Shown here in pieces: positions 21,069 to 38,683 of a DNA stretch of 38,683 nt. The notes beneath the pieces were generated by a model. That model searched no databases and was not told where the DNA came from. It worked only from the letters and a program-made list of their open reading frames with translations. Made by a program: the position numbers and the translations under genes. Source of the stretch: a virus; IMG/VR virus record IMGVR_UViG_3300023184_000281, positions 1-38,683 of that record. One strand, given 5' to 3'. Positions within the stretch are counted from its first letter, which is position 1; the number at the start of each line of letters is the position of its first letter.

Positions 21069-21448
21069 TAATAAAATACCATCCTTCCTATGTGTGTTTT
21101 TTTCCTTTTACCAAACCATTCTTTTTTTGGCGGTATCGAGTCATCATGGAAATATAAAGCGTCTGCAACTGGGTTTGTATATTTATGATGAACAATTGTA
21201 TTAATAACCAAAAGTTTAGTCTCCAAATACGCCCTTTCATCAACTGGATGGTGGGTTTCATCTTGCACAGCAAACTGATTATTAGCGTAAACAACAGAAC
21301 ATACAGAATAACCCCAACGACCACTACGCAACCTATTGCGAATAACATTGATGACCCCTACCTTTTCTTCTAATGAACGAGTATTGACCTCATGATACAC
21401 CGCAGTAGCATAACATGCAACATCTAACTCTAAATTATGAATATCCAT
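21068..21448 (-). CDS. Cell wall hydrolase, SleB/Hydrolase_2 type
   Basis: A 126-residue protein with the core of the SleB/CwlJ lytic transglycosylase-like domain: ACYATAVYHEVNTRSLEEKV with the probable catalytic Glu20, then INVIRNRLRSGRWGYSVCSVV and the end motif ADALYFHDDS. The domain is minimal, without signal peptide or peptidoglycan-binding repeats. It lies in the leftward early operon with recombination genes, not in the lysis region. It may help lysis, or locally open the wall; both are inference. Start and stop overlap neighbouring genes by one base. Confidence 0.78.
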   Translation of the reverse strand: MDIHNLELDVACYATAVYHEVNTRSLEEKVGVINVIRNRLRSGRWGYSVCSVVYANNQFAVQDETHHPVDERAYLETKLLVINTIVHHKYTNPVADALYFHDDSIPPKKEWFGKRKKTHIGRMVFY

Positions 21449-21780
21449 TATGGTTTGTAAGTATTATACACAATAGGATGTACCACTTCTGGCGTTAAAA
21501 TATCCACAATTTTTTTTCTAATAGAATCTTTATGTATATTAACTATAAAACAACATAGGTCTAATAAATCGCTATTAGTAAATAACCATTTAATAGCGTC
21601 TATCCTGCTATCTGCATTAATCTGATGGTCATATTTTGTATTTTTACTTAAGTCAAAATTAGGTCTTTGCCTATATAAAGCATCTTCTACTGCTTTCATA
21701 AGAATACATGTCATTAACTTACCTTCTGGGCTATGTGCCAACATACTGTTATCATCGTTATCAATTATATCTTCTAACAT
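21448..21780 (-). CDS. Hypothetical protein (110 aa)
   Basis: A 110-residue mostly helical soluble protein with an acidic N-terminus (MLEDIIDNDDNSM). The core motif KYDHQINADSRIDAIKWLFTNS resembles a module seen in phage proteins where a variable domain precedes a short DNA-binding-like helix pair, but I cannot name a family. It lies immediately downstream (in the leftward sense) of the pqqA insertion. An AGGAGGCAAT ribosome binding site precedes the ATG. Confidence 0.6.
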   Translation of the reverse strand: MLEDIIDNDDNSMLAHSPEGKLMTCILMKAVEDALYRQRPNFDLSKNTKYDHQINADSRIDAIKWLFTNSDLLDLCCFIVNIHKDSIRKKIVDILTPEVVHPIVYNTYKP

Positions 21781-21829
21781 ATTGCCTCCTGATTTTCCTT
21801 AGGGTTATATAATTACTTTCTTATTGACT

Positions 21830-21860
21830 TTGCCTGTAAAAACCACGAAAATTGTATACA
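21830..21860 (+). promoter_or_regulatory. Candidate promoter for pqqA
   Basis: TTGCCT at 21830-21835 and TGTATA at 21853-21858 are separated by 17 bases; TATACA at 21855 is an alternative -10 with longer spacing. The -10 region contains the palindrome TGTATACA. It lies 35 bases before the pqqA start and points the right way. Both hexamers are imperfect, so this is a suggestion. Confidence 0.4.
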
Positions 21861-21894
21861 CAAGCAAACTGCTTGGACTTTTAAGGACATTATC

Positions 21895-21966
21895 ATGTGG
21901 ACAAAACCATCAGCAACTGAAATGCGTTTCGGCTTTGAAGTAACTATGTACGTTATGAACAAGTAG
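21895..21966 (+). CDS. pqqA: PqqA, precursor peptide of the cofactor PQQ
   Basis: A 23-residue peptide beginning MWTKPS and containing RFGFEVTMY, the hallmark of PqqA. Glu15 and Tyr19, with three residues between, are the pair that PqqE (with PqqD) cross-links and that becomes the PQQ skeleton. Bacterial PqqA peptides are typically 22-29 residues with the same W(T/K)KP start and E(V)T(M/L)Y core, so this copy looks complete and functional. AAGGA at 21883-21887 lies seven bases before the ATG. The gene is the only rightward gene inside the leftward operon; no pqqB, C, D or E is present, so it would depend on the host's enzymes. It would be expected to supply extra precursor to a PQQ-making host. 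The gene is too short for routine gene callers. Confidence 0.93.
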   Translation: MWTKPSATEMRFGFEVTMYVMNK

Positions 21967-21982: not shown

Positions 21983-22010
21983 GGGGATGCTCCTAAAAAG
22001 GAACATCCTC
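21983..22010. terminator. Hairpin after pqqA, overlapping the end of the SSB-like gene
   Basis: GGATG / CATCC and TCCT / AGGA, separated by one C-A mismatch, form a stem of about ten pairs with an AAAA loop. It starts 16 bases after the pqqA stop. There is no T run, so it is at best a weak terminator or RNA-stabilising structure. It also covers the last codons of the leftward gene ending at 21993. Just before it is a tandem AGTGTGTAT repeat (21965-21982). Confidence 0.4.
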
Positions 22011-22223
22011 ATCTACTGCTTCTTGCTTTGGTTTAACATCACCCTCTTTTAACTGTACAGAGCCACTAATAAACTTACCTTTAGCACTCTCTCTAATCCA
22101 TCCACTAATTCTAAACTCAATCCCATCTACGTTAGCATTGCCTGTGTAGTCTGGTCGTTTTGGATTATCGCCTTTATCATTCTTAAATAAAGTAAACGTA
22201 TTTGTATTATCATATTCTGCCAT
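21993..22223 (-). CDS. Small single-stranded DNA-binding-like protein with SSB tail
   Basis: A 76-residue protein. The body (NTFTLFKNDKGDN, then GNANVDGIEFRISGWIRESA, GKFISGSVQLKEGD) has the alternating strand pattern of a minimal OB-like domain. The C-terminus is a flexible stretch ending DEDVPF, very close to the DDDIPF tip by which bacterial SSB recruits repair and replication proteins. It lies in the same operon as YqaJ exonuclease and ERF annealase. An SSB role is inferred from tail and context; the body is shorter than a standard SSB fold. Confidence 0.65.
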   Translation of the reverse strand: MAEYDNTNTFTLFKNDKGDNPKRPDYTGNANVDGIEFRISGWIRESAKGKFISGSVQLKEGDVKPKQEAVDEDVPF

Positions 22224-22224
22224 T

Positions 22225-22425
22225 TTATTTCCTTTGTGTTTTATAAAAGTTTGCTACTGTGCTACCTGTAAAGTTATCAGGATGACGTTTAATTAATTGA
22301 CCAATAACTTTATCTAATCTTTCCATGTACTCTTCTTGCTTTTCTAAAGACAGTTCATCAAATGTTTGTGCATGTAATCCACTAGATGCTTTAATTAATG
22401 CTTGTCTTTCTATATCGTTAAACAT
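22225..22425 (-). CDS. Hypothetical protein (66 aa)
   Basis: A 66-residue charged helical protein (MFNDIERQALIKASSGLHA, EEYMERLDKVIGQLIKRHP). It is placed between the exonuclease and the SSB-like gene; its start codon overlaps the exonuclease stop by one base. It may be an accessory of the recombination proteins. No family recognised. Confidence 0.6.
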   Translation of the reverse strand: MFNDIERQALIKASSGLHAQTFDELSLEKQEEYMERLDKVIGQLIKRHPDNFTGSTVANFYKTQRK

Positions 22426-23027
22426 TACTTAATCTCCTTAAGTTTATTAATTACATTATCTACTTCTTTTAAAAACTCCTGTACTTCTGTTTCTAATTCT
22501 TTTTGATATACAGGGTCTGCCTCTATACGTTTTACAAATATCTGTAAATGCTTTGGAAACATTGGGTGGTAACTAACAAAATCACACCACTTACGACCTG
22601 TCACCAAAAGTTGAAACTGTACTTGAGGGACGTACTTACTTGGAATGTCTTGTGTCATCAATGTCTCAGTATGCGTACTTCCCATAGGACACTTAATTTC
22701 AAGAATACCATCATCACCTACCATACCATCAGGACTAGCACCAGCTTCCAAAGTGGGATGCTTGACAAATCCCACCTCTTCCACTTCCCCATGTTCTTGC
22801 ACATACCTTTCCCTAGCAAATTGCTCCCTATCTATACCGTCTTGCATTGCTTGGTTAATATAGGACTCTTGCCTTTCTCCAGTCAATCTTTCGCTTACTA
22901 ACTGAATCTTGTAGTTACGTCTAGACGCAGATTCACCACTCTTAATCTTTGCTAGCACATCAGCCACACGACTGGCTGTAACCAAACCGAGCCTCGCTTG
23001 AAACCACTCTTGGGAAAGTTGTTCCAT
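22425..23027 (-). CDS. YqaJ-type recombination exonuclease
   Basis: A 200-residue protein of the YqaJ/lambda-exonuclease family. The N-terminal motif (EWFQARLGLVTASRVADV) is the family's opening. The PD-(D/E)xK nuclease site is Asp100 in GASPDG and Glu110-Ile-Lys112 in ILEIKCP, followed by YVPQVQFQLLVTG. It would resect double-stranded DNA ends 5'-3' to give single strands for the annealase encoded directly upstream. The length is typical. Translation is coupled to ERF (stop and start overlap by one base). Confidence 0.9.
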   Translation of the reverse strand: MEQLSQEWFQARLGLVTASRVADVLAKIKSGESASRRNYKIQLVSERLTGERQESYINQAMQDGIDREQFARERYVQEHGEVEEVGFVKHPTLEAGASPDGMVGDDGILEIKCPMGSTHTETLMTQDIPSKYVPQVQFQLLVTGRKWCDFVSYHPMFPKHLQIFVKRIEADPVYQKELETEVQEFLKEVDNVINKLKEIK

Positions 23028-24088: not shown

Positions 24089-24674
24089 GTTTAATTATTA
24101 CAATGTTTCTAATCCAAAATATCGTAAAGAGATGACATGGTTTAAAATTTATGGTAGGGATATTTTAAATAATTTAGATTGGTTTTTGTTATCTTCAGAG
24201 CAAAAAGCAACTATTTTTGAACTATGGTGTTTAGCTAGTCAAGATGAAGGCAATTTGCCTAGTGTTGATATTATAGCATTTAGGCTTCGTAAAGATAAAG
24301 ACTATATAATCAATGCTTTAGAAACTTTAAAAGATTGGCTCTGCACTTCGTCTGCCCTTCGTCCGCCCTTTGTCTGCCCTTCGTCCGCCCCAGATAAGAT
24401 AAGAGAAGATAAGATAATATCTATTGTGCGGTTTGAAGATTTTTGGAAAGAGTATCCAGTCAATAGAAAAGTAGGTAAAAAACCATGTATGGAAAAATGG
24501 GGCAGCAAGGGATTGGATAATATTGCTGACAAAATTATGTCTCATGTTAAAACTATGAAACAAACTAAGTCATGGAAAGAAGGATTTAATCCAGCACCAT
24601 TAACATACATTAATCAAGAAAGATGGGAAGATGATAATACACCTAAACGAAATGTATGGGATAACGCATTATGA
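24066..24674 (+). CDS. Replication initiator, O-like, carrying the origin
   Basis: A 202-residue protein. The N-terminal part (MTWFKIYGRDILNNLDWFLL, EQKATIFELWCLASQDEGNL, IIAFRLRKDKDYIINALETL) is a winged-helix-like DNA-binding domain as in phage replication proteins. A low-complexity linker around residues 94-120 is encoded by the iterons. The C-terminal part (FEDFWKEYPVNRKVGKKPCMEKWGS and WEDDNTP) resembles the helicase-contacting end of phage DnaT/O-type proteins. It overlaps cro by 23 bases with a good AGGAGA site, and its stop overlaps the helicase start. It should open the origin and load the helicase. Confidence 0.75.
   Translation: MRIKNWDKFNYYNVSNPKYRKEMTWFKIYGRDILNNLDWFLLSSEQKATIFELWCLASQDEGNLPSVDIIAFRLRKDKDYIINALETLKDWLCTSSALRPPFVCPSSAPDKIREDKIISIVRFEDFWKEYPVNRKVGKKPCMEKWGSKGLDNIADKIMSHVKTMKQTKSWKEGFNPAPLTYINQERWEDDNTPKRNVWDNAL
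24346..24417 (+). other. Candidate replication origin: four 11-bp iterons and AT-rich unwinding element
   Basis: Four contiguous 11-bp direct repeats CTT(C/T)GTC(T/C)GCC lie at 24346, 24357, 24368 and 24379. Immediately after are five 5-base units, GATAA or GAGAA (24393-24417), giving a strongly strand-biased, easily melted stretch. Since 11 is not a multiple of three, the repeats do not repeat the protein, so the conservation is at DNA level. Iterons inside the O gene followed by an A-rich element is the arrangement of the lambda origin. Confidence 0.75.
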
Positions 24675-25591
24675 ACATAGGTGATGTTATAGATTCATTA
24701 ACAGTTAATCAATCTGTTATTACTAACTACTACCAACAAAAGGAATATGAACATGCAGAATTTAAAGTTAAGGATACGTCTGTGTTTACTGACGATGTCT
24801 TGCGATATTTTAATACTGAAATACATAGTGGCAAAACATTGGGATTTATTAAAACGGAAGATTCATTTAGAGTAAGACCAAGCGAGTTAACTGTGTTGAC
24901 AGGAGTATCTGGTCATGGTAAGTCTATGTGGCTATCACAAGTTATATTGTCTCTTATGGCACAAGGAACTAAATGTTTAGTCTCAAGCCTAGAAATGCGT
25001 CCAGTGCTTTCTCTTGCACGAATGATTACTCAAACTTTAGGTTCACCAGAACCAACAGATGAATTTATAACTAAATTTTGTGAACGTGCAAAAGATAAAT
25101 TATATATTTATGACCAGATGGGCTCAACATCTAGTGAAGATATGATTGCTACATTGTATTGGGGCAAACACATTTTAGGTGTACAAGTATTTGTGATTGA
25201 CTCATTGATGAAGATGTCAGATATTTCAGAAGATAATTATGAGAAACAAAAGTTGTTTATAGATCGACTTGCTGTTACTTGCAGAGATTTAGAAATTCAT
25301 GTATTCTTAGTAGCACACACTAGAAAGATGGCAGATGAATCAGAGATTCCAGATGCTACTCACATTCTTGGTTCATCACATATACGAAATTTATGCGATA
25401 ACATAATTTGTGTTTGGCGTAACAGAAACAAAGAGCGTGAAGTAGAAAACAATGAAAAGACAGAAGATGAATTAAAGAAAATACCAGACGCTATGATTTT
25501 TGTTCAGAAGCAGCGTAACTATCAATTTGAAGGTAAGTTTTGTTTTTGGTTTGACCCTAAAGGATTGAAATACAAAGAATCACCTAGATGA
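24671..25591 (+). CDS. DnaB-like replicative helicase (helicase domain only)
   Basis: A 306-residue RecA-fold ATPase. The Walker A motif is GVSGHGKS (residues about 77-84), Walker B is VFVIDSLMKM (about 172-181), and there is a conserved VAHTRK arginine/histidine motif and GSSHIRNLCDNIICVWRNR toward the end. It lacks the N-terminal domain of DnaB and any primase, so it resembles the short phage helicases of the T7 gp4/DnaB type that use host DnaG primase. It is encoded directly after the initiator (overlapping ATGA), as lambda P follows O. Confidence 0.85.
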   Translation: MNIGDVIDSLTVNQSVITNYYQQKEYEHAEFKVKDTSVFTDDVLRYFNTEIHSGKTLGFIKTEDSFRVRPSELTVLTGVSGHGKSMWLSQVILSLMAQGTKCLVSSLEMRPVLSLARMITQTLGSPEPTDEFITKFCERAKDKLYIYDQMGSTSSEDMIATLYWGKHILGVQVFVIDSLMKMSDISEDNYEKQKLFIDRLAVTCRDLEIHVFLVAHTRKMADESEIPDATHILGSSHIRNLCDNIICVWRNRNKEREVENNEKTEDELKKIPDAMIFVQKQRNYQFEGKFCFWFDPKGLKYKESPR

Positions 25592-25764
25592 CCATAAATG
25601 ATTTTATAAAAGAATGTAAGAAATTATTTGGTGATGATATTGCTTACAAAGCAACTTCCAAAGATGGTGTAGTATTTAAAAATAAATGGAGAGACAGTTA
25701 TGATACGATGGAGTCTAAATCAACAGAACCTAAACAATTTATTCGAAAAAATAAAAGCACTTGA
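25588..25764 (+). CDS. Hypothetical protein between helicase and NinB (58 aa)
   Basis: An ORF of 58 codons starting at the ATGA overlap with the helicase stop. It encodes MTINDFIKECKKLFGDDIAY followed by a polar, basic tail. Its last 65 bases overlap the start of the ninB gene in another frame. The overlap with the helicase stop and the lack of another gene for 110 bases are in favour. No family recognised. Confidence 0.55.
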   Translation: MTINDFIKECKKLFGDDIAYKATSKDGVVFKNKWRDSYDTMESKSTEPKQFIRKNKST

Positions 25765-26053
25765 CTTTACTAAACGATGGAAAGTAAACATTAGTGAAGA
25801 GAAAACGGTCAGGTCTCTTGAATCCAATGAGAGATTATGGGCGTTGTATAATTCCATAGGTAATTATTTGGGAGAAGACGCTTCTACAATACATGAGCTT
25901 ATGGGGTATAAGTTTTTAAGAGAACAACGTGAAATATGTGGTAATCCTGTAGAGCTTATTAAATCAACTACAAAATTAGATTCTAAACAAATGGTGGAGT
26001 ATCAAGAAAACATTGAACGTTGGGCTAGTCAGTTAGGTTGGAGCTTTGAGTAA
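25700..26053 (+). CDS. ninB: NinB-like recombination protein
   Basis: A 117-residue protein of the NinB family (Orf of lambda): SNERLWALYNSIGNYLGEDASTIHELMGYKFL with the helical core, and a C-terminal IERWASQLGW. NinB/Orf binds single-stranded DNA and SSB and replaces RecF/O/R function for phage recombination. It is found here just after the replication genes, as in lambda. The start at 25700 is the first ATG; upstream GAGAGACAG is a weak ribosome binding site. Confidence 0.82.
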   Translation: MIRWSLNQQNLNNLFEKIKALDFTKRWKVNISEEKTVRSLESNERLWALYNSIGNYLGEDASTIHELMGYKFLREQREICGNPVELIKSTTKLDSKQMVEYQENIERWASQLGWSFE

Positions 26054-26339
26054 TTACAGAAACAAAAAACTACTTGAATTAGTTCGTGAGTTTCCATGTG
26101 CTATGTGTGGAAGAGAAGATGGCACAGTATGTGCTGCACACTCTAATCAACAAAGAGATGGCAAGGGCACAGGAATTAAGGCTCATGATTATCGCATCGC
26201 TAGTCTTTGTTATGCTTGCCATGATATGATAGACAATCATAAAGAGTTAAGTAGAGCAGACAAGGTAGAAGCATGGGAGTCTGCTCATCGTAAAACTATA
26301 GGATTGTTATTTGATAAGGGGTTAATTAAAATTGGGTAA
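26046..26339 (+). CDS. HNH-like nuclease of the YbcO/DUF1364 type
   Basis: A 97-residue protein with zinc-binding CAMC (Cys18, Cys21), VCAAHSNQQRDGKGTG as the catalytic loop (His32), and CYACHDMID (Cys55, Cys58, His59), matching the compact nuclease family that includes E. coli YbcO and is present in lambdoid ninB regions. It probably cleaves branched or nicked DNA. The start is a TTG at 26046, overlapping the ninB stop. Confidence 0.75.
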   Translation: MSNYRNKKLLELVREFPCAMCGREDGTVCAAHSNQQRDGKGTGIKAHDYRIASLCYACHDMIDNHKELSRADKVEAWESAHRKTIGLLFDKGLIKIG

Positions 26340-26541
26340 AGGTTCTACAAGAAGACCGTTGTTAATTTCTGAAACAGAAATAGAAAACAATTGGAACAAA
26401 ATATTTAAACGAAAAGAAAATAGCCCTGACGTATCACCTCACGCTTATGAATATGAATTAAACAAATCTACAGGGGAAGTAGAAAAGCGTTTTATAGAAG
26501 GAACATCTAAACCTAACGAAAGTCAATTTGATGGCGACTAG
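26332..26541 (+). CDS. Conserved phage early protein (69 aa)
   Basis: A 69-residue basic/acidic protein beginning MGKGSTRRPLLIS with a TTG start at 26332. The MGKG-RRP-IS-xE-xNW-xIF pattern (EIENNWNKIFKR) recurs in small proteins of many phage genomes, which supports the TTG as start. Function unknown. It overlaps the previous gene by eight bases, so it belongs to the same operon. Confidence 0.65.
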   Translation: MGKGSTRRPLLISETEIENNWNKIFKRKENSPDVSPHAYEYELNKSTGEVEKRFIEGTSKPNESQFDGD

Positions 26542-26845
26542 CCCAACGCAGTTAAGTCTTAAGAAGTTAAGAGCAGAAGGATACCTTGTAGCTATTACAG
26601 AAAAATTTAATCACTTTTGTAAAATTCGCCAAGACATGTGGGGTTGGTGTGATCTACTTGCTGTAAAAGAAGATGAAGTGTTAGCAGTGCAAACTACCAG
26701 TTATACAAATATTTCTGCAAGAGTTAAAAAAATTGCTGATAGTGATACGATAGGGATAGTAAGAAAAGCTAACATAAAAGTGAACGTGCATGGGTGGCGT
26801 AAGGTTGGCAGTCGTTGGGAATGTAAAGTGGTAGATGTATCATAA
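26531..26845 (+). CDS. Putative PD-(D/E)xK-like nuclease/resolvase
   Basis: A 104-residue protein beginning MATSPTQLSLKKLRAEGYLV. The core DMWGWCDLLAVKEDEVLAVQTTSYTNISARVKK has an Asp, then a Val-Leu-Ala-Val-Gln strand, which is the layout of restriction-endonuclease-like phage nucleases (VRR-NUC or Holliday-junction resolvase-like). The usual Lys of the ExK motif is missing (QTT), so activity is uncertain. It lies among NinB and YbcO-like genes, where resolvases are common. It starts just before the preceding stop (overlap). Confidence 0.6.
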   Translation: MATSPTQLSLKKLRAEGYLVAITEKFNHFCKIRQDMWGWCDLLAVKEDEVLAVQTTSYTNISARVKKIADSDTIGIVRKANIKVNVHGWRKVGSRWECKVVDVS

Positions 26846-26853
26846 GGAAAAAT

Positions 26854-27186
26854 ATGCAAGCCAAAAGTAGAAGTTATAATGTAAGAGGTCGGTTAATCAA
26901 TCTAGAAAAGATGCGTAGTCTTATTGTAGAAACCATTGGAGATAGAACATTAACCATTGAAGAGTTATCTAAAGACATGGGCATGGAACGTAGAAAAGTT
27001 CAATATGTTTTGCTTAACATGAAAAATTTAGGTATGTTGAATTGCGTTAAAGATGGAAAGTTATTTAAATATTTTAAACCTTATGCTCACCCATTACAAA
27101 TGATATTTCACCCTATGCCAGACTTTAGCGACAGGATTAAAGGCATTTATATTCATACAGAAGAGGAAGCCAATGCACATAGATAG
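26854..27186 (+). CDS. Winged-helix DNA-binding protein
   Basis: A 110-residue protein. Residues about 15-60 fit a winged helix: MRSLIVETIGDRTLTIEELS, then KDMGMERRKVQYVLLNMKNL with a wing-like YFKP. It probably regulates the switch to late expression or binds phage DNA, since it lies directly before the Q-like gene and overlaps it. The ATG follows AAGGAAAAAT. No exact family recognised. Confidence 0.6.
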   Translation: MQAKSRSYNVRGRLINLEKMRSLIVETIGDRTLTIEELSKDMGMERRKVQYVLLNMKNLGMLNCVKDGKLFKYFKPYAHPLQMIFHPMPDFSDRIKGIYIHTEEEANAHR

Positions 27187-27499
27187 GCTTAAACAAATTT
27201 TAGATGATTGGGCATTGTGGCATAAGACTCCAAGTCATCGTTTAGGATACCCTAGCAAGTCTTTAGGCATGATTTCAGGCGGTGAGTCTACTAGCGATGC
27301 TTTTGAGGATATGGTAGGGCAGATGGATATGACTAATGTTAGGACAATAGATGCAATTATAGATAGCTTACCCTCCAAACAAAAAGAAGCAATTTATACA
27401 AGGTATTTGAAAACTCGCAAATCTCTCAATTATGAGCATGAATTAGAAATGGGTATAGATAACTTACTAACTATAGCTTCAAGGCGTATAGTCGCTTGA
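27173..27499 (+). CDS. Q-like late antiterminator
   Basis: A 108-residue protein. The features of the Q-type antitermination family are the WALWHKTPSHRLGYPSKSLG motif, a middle acidic region, and a C-terminal helix-turn-helix-like IDAIIDSLPSKQKEAIYTRY resembling sigma region 4. It would modify host RNA polymerase stalled at the late promoter just downstream so it passes terminators. The stop lies inside the -35 of that promoter, as in lambda where Q directly precedes PR'. A sigma-factor-like regulator is the alternative. Confidence 0.72.
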   Translation: MHIDRLKQILDDWALWHKTPSHRLGYPSKSLGMISGGESTSDAFEDMVGQMDMTNVRTIDAIIDSLPSKQKEAIYTRYLKTRKSLNYEHELEMGIDNLLTIASRRIVA

Positions 27500-27524
27500 C
27501 ACGAGCATTTAATTATGATATAAT
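27496..27524 (+). promoter_or_regulatory. Perfect sigma-70 promoter (PR'-like late promoter)
   Basis: TTGACA (27496-27501), exactly 17 bases, then TATAAT (27519-27524): both hexamers match the consensus in full. The -35 overlaps the stop codon of the Q-like gene. The predicted start is near 27531, giving a leader of about 40 bases before the terminator at 27569. Position, strength and leader length match the lambda late promoter. Confidence 0.88.
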
Positions 27525-27568
27525 CACGTTATTGGATAACTCTCGCCCATAATCTCCGTAGCATCTTT

Positions 27569-36570: not shown

Positions 36571-36798
36571 TTGAATATACAAAACATTCAAAACATTCTT
36601 AAAGATGACGATTTTAAATCAGTCTTACAAATGATGATTGATAGTCATATGCAACAAATTATAAACTCTAATGACTCAGATAAAGAAATTAGAGAGCAGT
36701 CCTATTATAAAATAGCTGCTATAAAAGAATTAATCGGTAGTCTTGAAGCCATTGCAGCAGGTCAAGCAATAGCTGAGAACCGATTTAAGATATTGTAG
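36571..36798 (+). CDS. Small conserved protein between portal and scaffold (75 aa)
   Basis: A 75-residue helical acidic protein (MNIQNIQNILKDDDFKSVLQ, then EIREQSYYKIAAIKELIGSL). It starts with TTG at 36571 directly after the portal stop; AAGGA lies eight bases before. Small helical proteins at this place occur in SU10-like phages; no function known. Confidence 0.65.
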   Translation: MNIQNIQNILKDDDFKSVLQMMIDSHMQQIINSNDSDKEIREQSYYKIAAIKELIGSLEAIAAGQAIAENRFKIL

Positions 36799-36847
36799 AT
36801 AATTCTACATTTGGTACACCTCCCATAGAGGTAATATAGGAAAATAA

Positions 36848-37849
36848 ATGAGTGAAAACACCATGACTCCAGAAAATTCTGGAAGTGGCACGCTTACTGT
36901 AAGTCAAGCAGCCAATGCGTTTGAAGGTCTAATGGACACCCCAGCTAACTCTTCGGAGCAAAGAGCAGGTGAACTAGAAGCTGAACAAGCACTGGAGCAA
37001 GAAGCAGAGCCACAACAAGAAACTGAACAAGTAGAAGAAGTTGTTGAGGATAATGCTGAAGTACAAGAAGATGACAGTCAAGAAGAAGAGCCTTCATATG
37101 TAATTAAAGCCGCAGGGGAAGAAAAAGAAGTACCTCTATCTGAATTGATTAAAGGTTATCAGCTTGGTGCTGACTATACAAAAAAAACTACCGAAGTAGC
37201 AGAACAACGTAAGCTAGTGGAAGCTGAACGTGGTGCTATTGAGGAAGCCAAGTATGCTCGTGATTCATATGCTCAACGTTTGCAAGCAGTAGACCAGTTT
37301 CTAACTTCGCAAATGCCACAAGAGGATTTACAATCCCTTAAAGAAAATGACCCTATAGGATATGCAGTAAAAGTTGCTGAACTTTCTGAAAAGAAAGAAC
37401 AACTACAGGCTATTAGAGCCGAACAAGGCAGAATTGCTCAAGAGCAACAATCTGACTATGCTCGTGCCATGTCTGATAGAGTTCAACAAGAAGCATCTAA
37501 ACTAGCACAAGTCCTACCAGAGTTTTCAGACCCAGCCAAAGGCGATAATGTCCGTAAGGAAATTCGCAATTATGGCAAGACGTTAGGATTTACTGAAGAG
37601 GAACTCTCACAGGTATATGACTCTCGTCATGTGCTCACTCTACACAAGGCAATGATGTATGACAAACTTCAAAAATCAAAGCCAGCTATTACCAAGAAAG
37701 TAAATGAAGCTCCTAGAATGTTAAGAGCAGGTACTTCTGGTGGTAACAAACAAAGTGATGCACAGAAACTAACACAACAAAAAACCCAGTTGCGTAACTC
37801 TGGTAAAGTCAGAGATGCCGCAGCTTTATTTGAACAATTATTAGAATAA
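36848..37849 (+). CDS. Scaffolding protein
   Basis: A 333-residue protein with an acidic Glu/Gln-rich N-terminal third (residues about 45-85), a KAAGEEKEVPLSELIKGYQL segment and a long charged coiled coil (residues about 115-200), then a basic Gly/Lys/Gln-rich C-terminus. This is the usual build of head scaffolds, which guide capsid assembly and leave the head. It directly precedes the capsid gene and follows the portal gene. AGGAAAATAA precedes the ATG. Confidence 0.85.
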   Translation: MSENTMTPENSGSGTLTVSQAANAFEGLMDTPANSSEQRAGELEAEQALEQEAEPQQETEQVEEVVEDNAEVQEDDSQEEEPSYVIKAAGEEKEVPLSELIKGYQLGADYTKKTTEVAEQRKLVEAERGAIEEAKYARDSYAQRLQAVDQFLTSQMPQEDLQSLKENDPIGYAVKVAELSEKKEQLQAIRAEQGRIAQEQQSDYARAMSDRVQQEASKLAQVLPEFSDPAKGDNVRKEIRNYGKTLGFTEEELSQVYDSRHVLTLHKAMMYDKLQKSKPAITKKVNEAPRMLRAGTSGGNKQSDAQKLTQQKTQLRNSGKVRDAAALFEQLLE

Positions 37850-37861
37850 GGACATTAACAA

Positions 37862-38683
37862 ATGGCAACGTATCAAACCTATACAGCTATCGGTCAAAGA
37901 GAAGACCTTTCAGATGTGATTTACAACATTTCTCCAACAGAAACACCATTCTTAAATTCAGTAGGCAAATCAAAAGCTACTGCTGTTTACCATGAATGGC
38001 AAACTGACTCATTAGCTGCGGTAAACACATCTAATTATGCAGTTGAAGGTGCAACAGCATCTGACGCTACAATGGGTGTAACAACACGAGTTGGTAACCG
38101 TACACAAATCTCACAAAAGACTATCAAAATTTCTGGTACTCTTGATGCAGTAAACAAAGCTGGTCGTAAATCTGAAAAGGCTTACCAATTAGCTAAAGCA
38201 TCTAGTGAAATTAAACGTGATATGGAAGCAACTTTGTTATCTAACCAAACTGCAGCTAATGGTAACTCTACAACAGCTCGTAATCTTGGTGGTTTACAAG
38301 CATGGTTAGCTTCTAACACATCAAACGGTTCTGGTGGTTCAGCAGGTGCTAACGGTACTACAGCTAGAACAACTGGTACTGATAGAGCTTTCACAGCTAC
38401 ATTACTTAACACTGTTATGCAATCAGCGTTCACAAACGGTGGTTCACCAACATTGTTATTAGTAACACCAGCTCAAAAAGTTGTGGCTTCTACATTCTCT
38501 GGTATTGCAACTCGTTACAGAGATGTACCAGCTAACCAACAAGCTCAAATCATCAATGCAGCAGATGTATACGTTTCTGACTTTGGTATCATCCAAATTG
38601 TTCCAGATCGTTTCATTCCTAACAGTGATTCTGATGACACAGCTTTCTTATTAGATACAGAAATGGCAGCAGTAGCTTACCTA
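37862..38683 (+). CDS. Major capsid protein, N-terminal part (allele B, 3'-truncated by the window end)
   Basis: 274 codons of the SU10-type major head protein (DUF5309 family). It begins MATYQTYTAIGQREDLSDVI with the N-arm typical of the family (YNISPTETPFLNSVGKSKAT, YHEWQTDSL), continues through TTRVGNRTQISQKTIKISGT, and runs off the window in TEMAAVAYL. It has a good AGGACATTAACAA ribosome binding site and follows the scaffold gene. From base 38105 on it corresponds to bases 1-579 of the window: identical to 38231, then a variant mainly in the Gly/Ser/Thr-rich segment (for example NTSNGSGGSAGANGTT here). Confidence 0.9.
   Translation, partial: MATYQTYTAIGQREDLSDVIYNISPTETPFLNSVGKSKATAVYHEWQTDSLAAVNTSNYAVEGATASDATMGVTTRVGNRTQISQKTIKISGTLDAVNKAGRKSEKAYQLAKASSEIKRDMEATLLSNQTAANGNSTTARNLGGLQAWLASNTSNGSGGSAGANGTTARTTGTDRAFTATLLNTVMQSAFTNGGSPTLLLVTPAQKVVASTFSGIATRYRDVPANQQAQIINAADVYVSDFGIIQIVPDRFIPNSDSDDTAFLLDTEMAAVAYL

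What the first reader, a model, noticed from the sequence alone, without database searches (positions are those of the whole stretch)
21895..21966. Phage-encoded PqqA: a PQQ precursor peptide gene in a virus
The 23-codon ORF encodes a peptide with the PqqA start (MWTKP) and the E-x-x-x-Y core (FEVTMY) that PqqE/PqqD cross-link to make PQQ. It has a clear Shine-Dalgarno at seven bases. No pqqB-E is present, so it would feed the host's own pathway. PqqA is consumed in making each PQQ molecule, and several methylotrophs carry more than one pqqA copy; extra precursor could raise PQQ supply for methanol dehydrogenase during infection. It could also act as a competitor for PqqD/PqqE. A gene of this size is missed by routine gene calling.
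Basis: partly seen in the sequence, partly recalled or inferred. Interest (0 to 1): 0.95.

Follow-up and report, generated by a model that had tools for sequence, protein, structure and literature searches.

The report
Methylotroph phages carry PQQ precursor gene

Summary
Window 21895-21966 (+) encodes MWTKPSATEMRFGFEVTMYVMNK: 43.3 bits against Pfam PqqA (cut-off 21.1), Glu15 and Tyr19 intact, AAGGA seven bases upstream.

The window is a virus record related to Venkman, a phage isolated on OM43 Methylophilaceae (TerL 72%). In the window's lineage 13 of 14 records covering the locus carry pqqA; flanks diverge while the peptide holds (pN/pS 0.07). Of 125 viral copies found by N-terminus alone, all keep Glu15, Tyr19 and length 23.

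Nine records of cultured methylophages (Venkman, P19250A, MEP301, MEP401/402, four Melnitz), spanning five terminase lineages, encode PqqA, unannotated. Their closest SAR11-infecting relatives give no hit. No pqqB-E or methanol dehydrogenase was found in the window; hosts have PqqE, XoxF and usually several pqqA copies. In wider P19250A-, MEP301- and MEP402-like families pqqA is often absent; the four such records inspected showed no remnant.

Best explanation: the phage supplies the one PQQ-pathway component consumed per cofactor molecule, sustaining methanol oxidation during infection. Expression and conversion to PQQ are inferred, not shown.

Viral PqqA itself was reported in 2020 (Lake Baikal). 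New here is its recurrence across methylophages, missed by annotation.

The parts
21895..21966 (+). pqqA, 23-aa PQQ precursor peptide MWTKPSATEMRFGFEVTMYVMNK, with Glu15 and Tyr19
21883..21887 (+). Shine-Dalgarno core AAGGA, seven bases before ATG
21824..21852 (+). Weak sigma-70-like promoter (TTGACT-17-GAAAAT), not above chance
21993..22223 (-). Single-strand DNA-binding protein, convergent neighbour
22425..23027 (-). YqaJ/RecE-type exonuclease; conserved neighbour used as the locus marker
21448..21780 (-). Hypothetical protein on the other side of pqqA; no PHROG match

Best explanation
The ORF is a functional pqqA carried as an auxiliary metabolic gene by a phage of Methylophilaceae. The peptide is made during infection, bound by host PqqD, cross-linked at Glu15-Tyr19 by host PqqE, and processed by the other host enzymes into PQQ for XoxF/Mxa methanol dehydrogenases. 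Shown here: the gene, its intactness, selection on it, its recurrence in methylophages, and the host pathway. Inferred: expression in infection, conversion to PQQ, and benefit to the phage.
For: Profile matches. Purifying selection amid diverging flanks. Reactive Glu and Tyr intact in 125 of 125 unbiased viral copies. PqqA in nine cultured methylophage records of five terminase lineages; no PqqA hit in SAR11-infecting relatives Mosig, HTVC008M and Hodr. Host PqqE in 12 of 13 genomes, a PQQ alcohol dehydrogenase over the cut-off in all 4 tested, pqqA in 13 of 13 with 1-12 copies but a single set of the other genes in published genomes (PMC4109929). PqqA Glu and Tyr are the residues cross-linked by PqqE (PMC10906245).
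Against: No transcript or peptide data. Promoter evidence is not above chance. pqqA is absent from many records in wider P19250A-, MEP301- and MEP402-like families, so it is not essential. That PqqA supply limits PQQ in these hosts is not demonstrated. OM43 cultures were given PQQ in the medium (PMC9004378), so the benefit may depend on conditions.
Confidence: 0.75

Rival explanations
1. The phage peptide acts as a competitor that ties up PqqD/PqqE and lowers host PQQ synthesis.
For: The N-terminal part that would bind PqqD is kept.
Against: A competitor needs no reactive Glu/Tyr pair, yet both are invariant in 125 of 125 viral copies selected by the N-terminus only, and the peptides match host substrate types, several exactly.
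Confidence: 0.05
2. Extra PQQ helps the phage by closing a PQQ-importing surface receptor (PqqU) and so excluding superinfecting phages.
For: PQQ blocks infection of E. coli by a PqqU-dependent phage (PMC12124388).
Against: The gene is shared by phages of several unrelated lineages, unlikely all to compete for one receptor. PqqU in Methylophilaceae and its use by these phages were not tested.
Confidence: 0.07
3. pqqA is a passenger picked up from hosts with many copies, with little effect on the phage.
For: Hosts have 1-12 donor copies; 8 viral copies are identical in DNA to a host-genome copy; presence is patchy in wider families.
Against: The window copy differs at 5 or more of 69 bases from every host copy sampled and sits at the same locus in 13 of 14 related records. 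pN/pS is 0.074. No decayed copies were seen where it is missing.
Confidence: 0.1

Closest known systems
Bacterial PqqA (PF08042 / TIGR02107), Methylophilaceae type
   Same: Length 23, W2, P5, ATEMRFGFEVTMY core, Glu15 and Tyr19, SD-led start; the peptide family overlaps host types exactly
   Different: Encoded in a phage genome, without pqqB-E; DNA differs at 5 or more of 69 bases from the host copies sampled
PqqA of Lake Baikal T4-like virus VP_266 (PMC7678222)
   Same: Virus-encoded PqqA in a predicted Methylophilaceae phage
   Different: A T4-like virus that also carries methanol dehydrogenase; the window is a Venkman/P22-like phage with no dehydrogenase found
Cyanophage psbA
   Different: psbA encodes a working subunit of a protein complex; PqqA is a consumed biosynthetic substrate. 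No homology is claimed

Membership tests
PqqA (PF08042, TIGR02107) | Score over curated cut-offs | tested here: met
   43.3 bits vs 21.1; 40 vs 20
PqqA (PF08042, TIGR02107) | Glu-x-x-x-Tyr pair that is cross-linked | tested here: met
   Glu15 and Tyr19 present; invariant in 125 of 125 viral copies
PqqA (PF08042, TIGR02107) | Short standalone translated ORF | tested here: met
   23 aa, SD AAGGA at seven bases; pN/pS 0.074. Translation itself not measured
PqqA (PF08042, TIGR02107) | Substrate of PqqD/PqqE, converted to PQQ | not testable with these tools
   Needs biochemistry or complementation
Viral auxiliary metabolic gene | Lies within a virus genome, not host DNA or a pqq operon | tested here: met
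   Syntenic with phage recombination genes in 13 of 14 relatives; present in isolate genomes; no PqqB-E
Viral auxiliary metabolic gene | Maintained by selection in phages | tested here: met
   pN/pS 0.074 in the lineage, 0.15 over 148 viral DNA versions
Viral auxiliary metabolic gene | Expressed in infection and alters host metabolism | not testable with these tools
   No expression data held

The most novel reading that the evidence does not exclude
Unrelated phages of aquatic methylotrophs have repeatedly taken up the consumable substrate of cofactor synthesis, and only that, making pqqA a hallmark gene of methylophages. PQQ precursor supply would then be a bottleneck of infection and an unnoticed viral control point on marine and freshwater methanol oxidation.
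Probability: 0.55. Interest if true: 0.82.

Novelty: new member of a known kind. Interest (0 to 1): 0.68.

Why it matters
Nine methylophage isolate records in five terminase lineages carry a gene that neither their annotation nor the papers on them that I could read mention. That points to a shared need of phages on methanol-oxidising hosts. The Methylophilaceae-type peptide also gives a short marker for linking unassigned viruses to methylotroph hosts. Cultured OM43 systems (H5P1 with Venkman or Melnitz) make the role directly testable.

Tried and rejected
A promoter common to phage pqqA: best sigma-70 matches barely exceed shuffles (39% vs 31% at 9 of 12). Acinetobacter 'phage' MD-2021a hits: the contig carries a pqqBCD-radical SAM cluster with other chromosomal-type genes, so I treat it as host DNA. 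Decayed pqqA in related phages: none found in the parts of G058, G053, G041 and G068 inspected. Universality in wider families: rejected. Hosts of the other viral PqqA types (L026, L033, L036) were not pursued. Methylophilales phages MEP431-434, Venkman EXVC038S and a few others exist in the taxonomy, but I did not find them as records, so they are untested and 'all isolates' cannot be claimed.

Full report
Observation. The 23-codon ORF at 21895-21966 (+) is real and is PqqA by two curated profiles. Its Shine-Dalgarno AAGGA lies seven bases upstream. The genome-level search gives one match, E=1.3e-11, while 14 control genomes give none.

Setting. The window is a 38,683-base virus record. Its relatives are the uncultured podovirus ctXG6705 (TerL 92%) and the cultured OM43 phage Venkman (TerL 72%, portal 58%). 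pqqA lies on the + strand, convergent with an SSB-exonuclease-Erf cluster on the - strand, with further - strand genes on its other side. I found no PqqB-E or PQQ alcohol dehydrogenase in the window.

Conservation in the lineage. Relatives were found by terminase, without reference to pqqA. Of 27 records over 12 kb, 13 have pqqA and 15 have the exonuclease. One of the 15, G014, is cut inside the exonuclease at the contig end. The other fourteen cover the locus and thirteen carry pqqA. The exception, G013, has an exonuclease only 58% identical, and its DNA looks richer in G+C by eye. The flanks diverge and gain indels, while the peptide varies only at positions 4, 6 and 7. pN/pS is 0.074; synonymous changes occur at, among others, Thr8, Arg11, Phe12, Val16, Thr17, Tyr19, Val20 and Asn22.

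Viral copies at large. A second scan used only N-terminal codons, so Glu15 and Tyr19 were not selected for: 125 of 125 viral copies keep both and have length 23. A PqqB-E search of the viral loci held at that point found only the Acinetobacter record L009, which I treat as chromosomal DNA. SD cores precede 247 of 249 viral copies against 20 after shuffling.

Cultured methylophages. A tblastn of 50,697 phage records found PqqA in Venkman (100%), ctXG6705 (96%, uncultured), P19250A and MEP301 (91%), MEP401 and MEP402 (87%) and four Melnitz isolates (77%). Five have no annotation under the match. In ctXG6705 and in Melnitz EXVC044M, the one Melnitz record I inspected, the annotated 'hypothetical protein' under it lies on the opposite strand. 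The window/Venkman, P19250A, MEP301, MEP402 and Melnitz terminases share at most weak similarity with each other (best between lineages E=1e-7 at 20% identity). Venkman's describers grouped it with P19250A by gene sharing (PMC8163748), and the exonuclease of the window is related to those of both, so independence of the early regions is less certain than that of the terminases.

Host specificity. Melnitz's nearest non-methylophage terminases are in SAR11 phages Mosig and HTVC008M (67-68%), and MEP301's is in SAR11 phage Hodr (42%); these gave no PqqA match. The N-terminal pattern scanned over species genomes returned records that are titled Methylophilaceae members or less precisely named proteobacterial bins. 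With the kinship to Venkman, this ties the window phage to that family.

Not universal. Among long records (30 kb or more) of relatives chosen by terminase, 5 of 9 P19250A-like, 5 of 7 MEP301-like and 1 of 5 MEP402-like carry pqqA; some may be incomplete. In four of the lacking records, inspected in part, no remnant is seen. The gene appears to be gained and lost as a whole, as metabolic cargo genes are.

Mechanism. Host genomes sampled have 1-12 pqqA copies. Twelve of 13 have PqqE above cut-off; the exception, G029, is a small single-cell assembly. All four tested have a PQQ alcohol dehydrogenase over the cut-off. Published Methylophilaceae genomes have 3-12 pqqA beside, typically, one set of the other pqq genes (PMC4109929). 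The Glu and Tyr of PqqA are cross-linked by PqqE with PqqD and the product is processed into PQQ (PMC10906245), so one peptide is consumed per cofactor. Hosts and phages thus both add copies of the same single component. The simplest reading is that peptide supply can limit PQQ, and that the phage keeps supply going while host expression declines. Expression, conversion and benefit are inferred. An inhibitor role is disfavoured by the invariant reactive pair. A superinfection role through PqqU is possible in principle (PMC12124388) but untested.

Novelty. Viral PqqA was reported in a Lake Baikal T4-like virus with methanol dehydrogenase (PMC7678222) and listed among viral genes in a 2026 reservoir study (PMC13188868). 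The papers on MEP301, MEP401/402, Venkman and Melnitz do not mention a phage pqqA in their main text; that on P19250A was not read. The window gene is therefore a new member of a known kind. The recurrence across cultured methylophages appears undescribed in the papers that I could search.

Noticed in passing
L009 (CAKLQF020000010.1, 104210-112263): A record named Acinetobacter phage MD-2021a carries pqqBCD, a radical SAM gene, polyphosphate kinase and other chromosomal-type genes; it is probably bacterial DNA in the phage collection.
   Followed up: partly
L395 (Venkman about 24565-27558) and L396 (MEP402 about 36615-37982): Venkman and MEP401/402, otherwise unrelated in terminase, share tail-fibre DNA at 76-83% identity, suggesting host-range gene exchange among OM43 phages.
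   Followed up: no
L146, L149, L206: Host-genome contigs of marine Methylophilaceae type carry two pqqA copies about 200 bases apart in tandem.
   Followed up: no
L012, L021, L026, L032, L033, L036: Viral contigs carry other PqqA types (for example [23 protein letters not shown]) without the ATEMRF motif, possibly from phages of other PQQ-making hosts.
   Followed up: no
MW202481 2067-2195 and MZ577097 76100-76195: Automatic annotation placed a 'hypothetical protein' on the strand opposite to pqqA in both records.
   Followed up: yes
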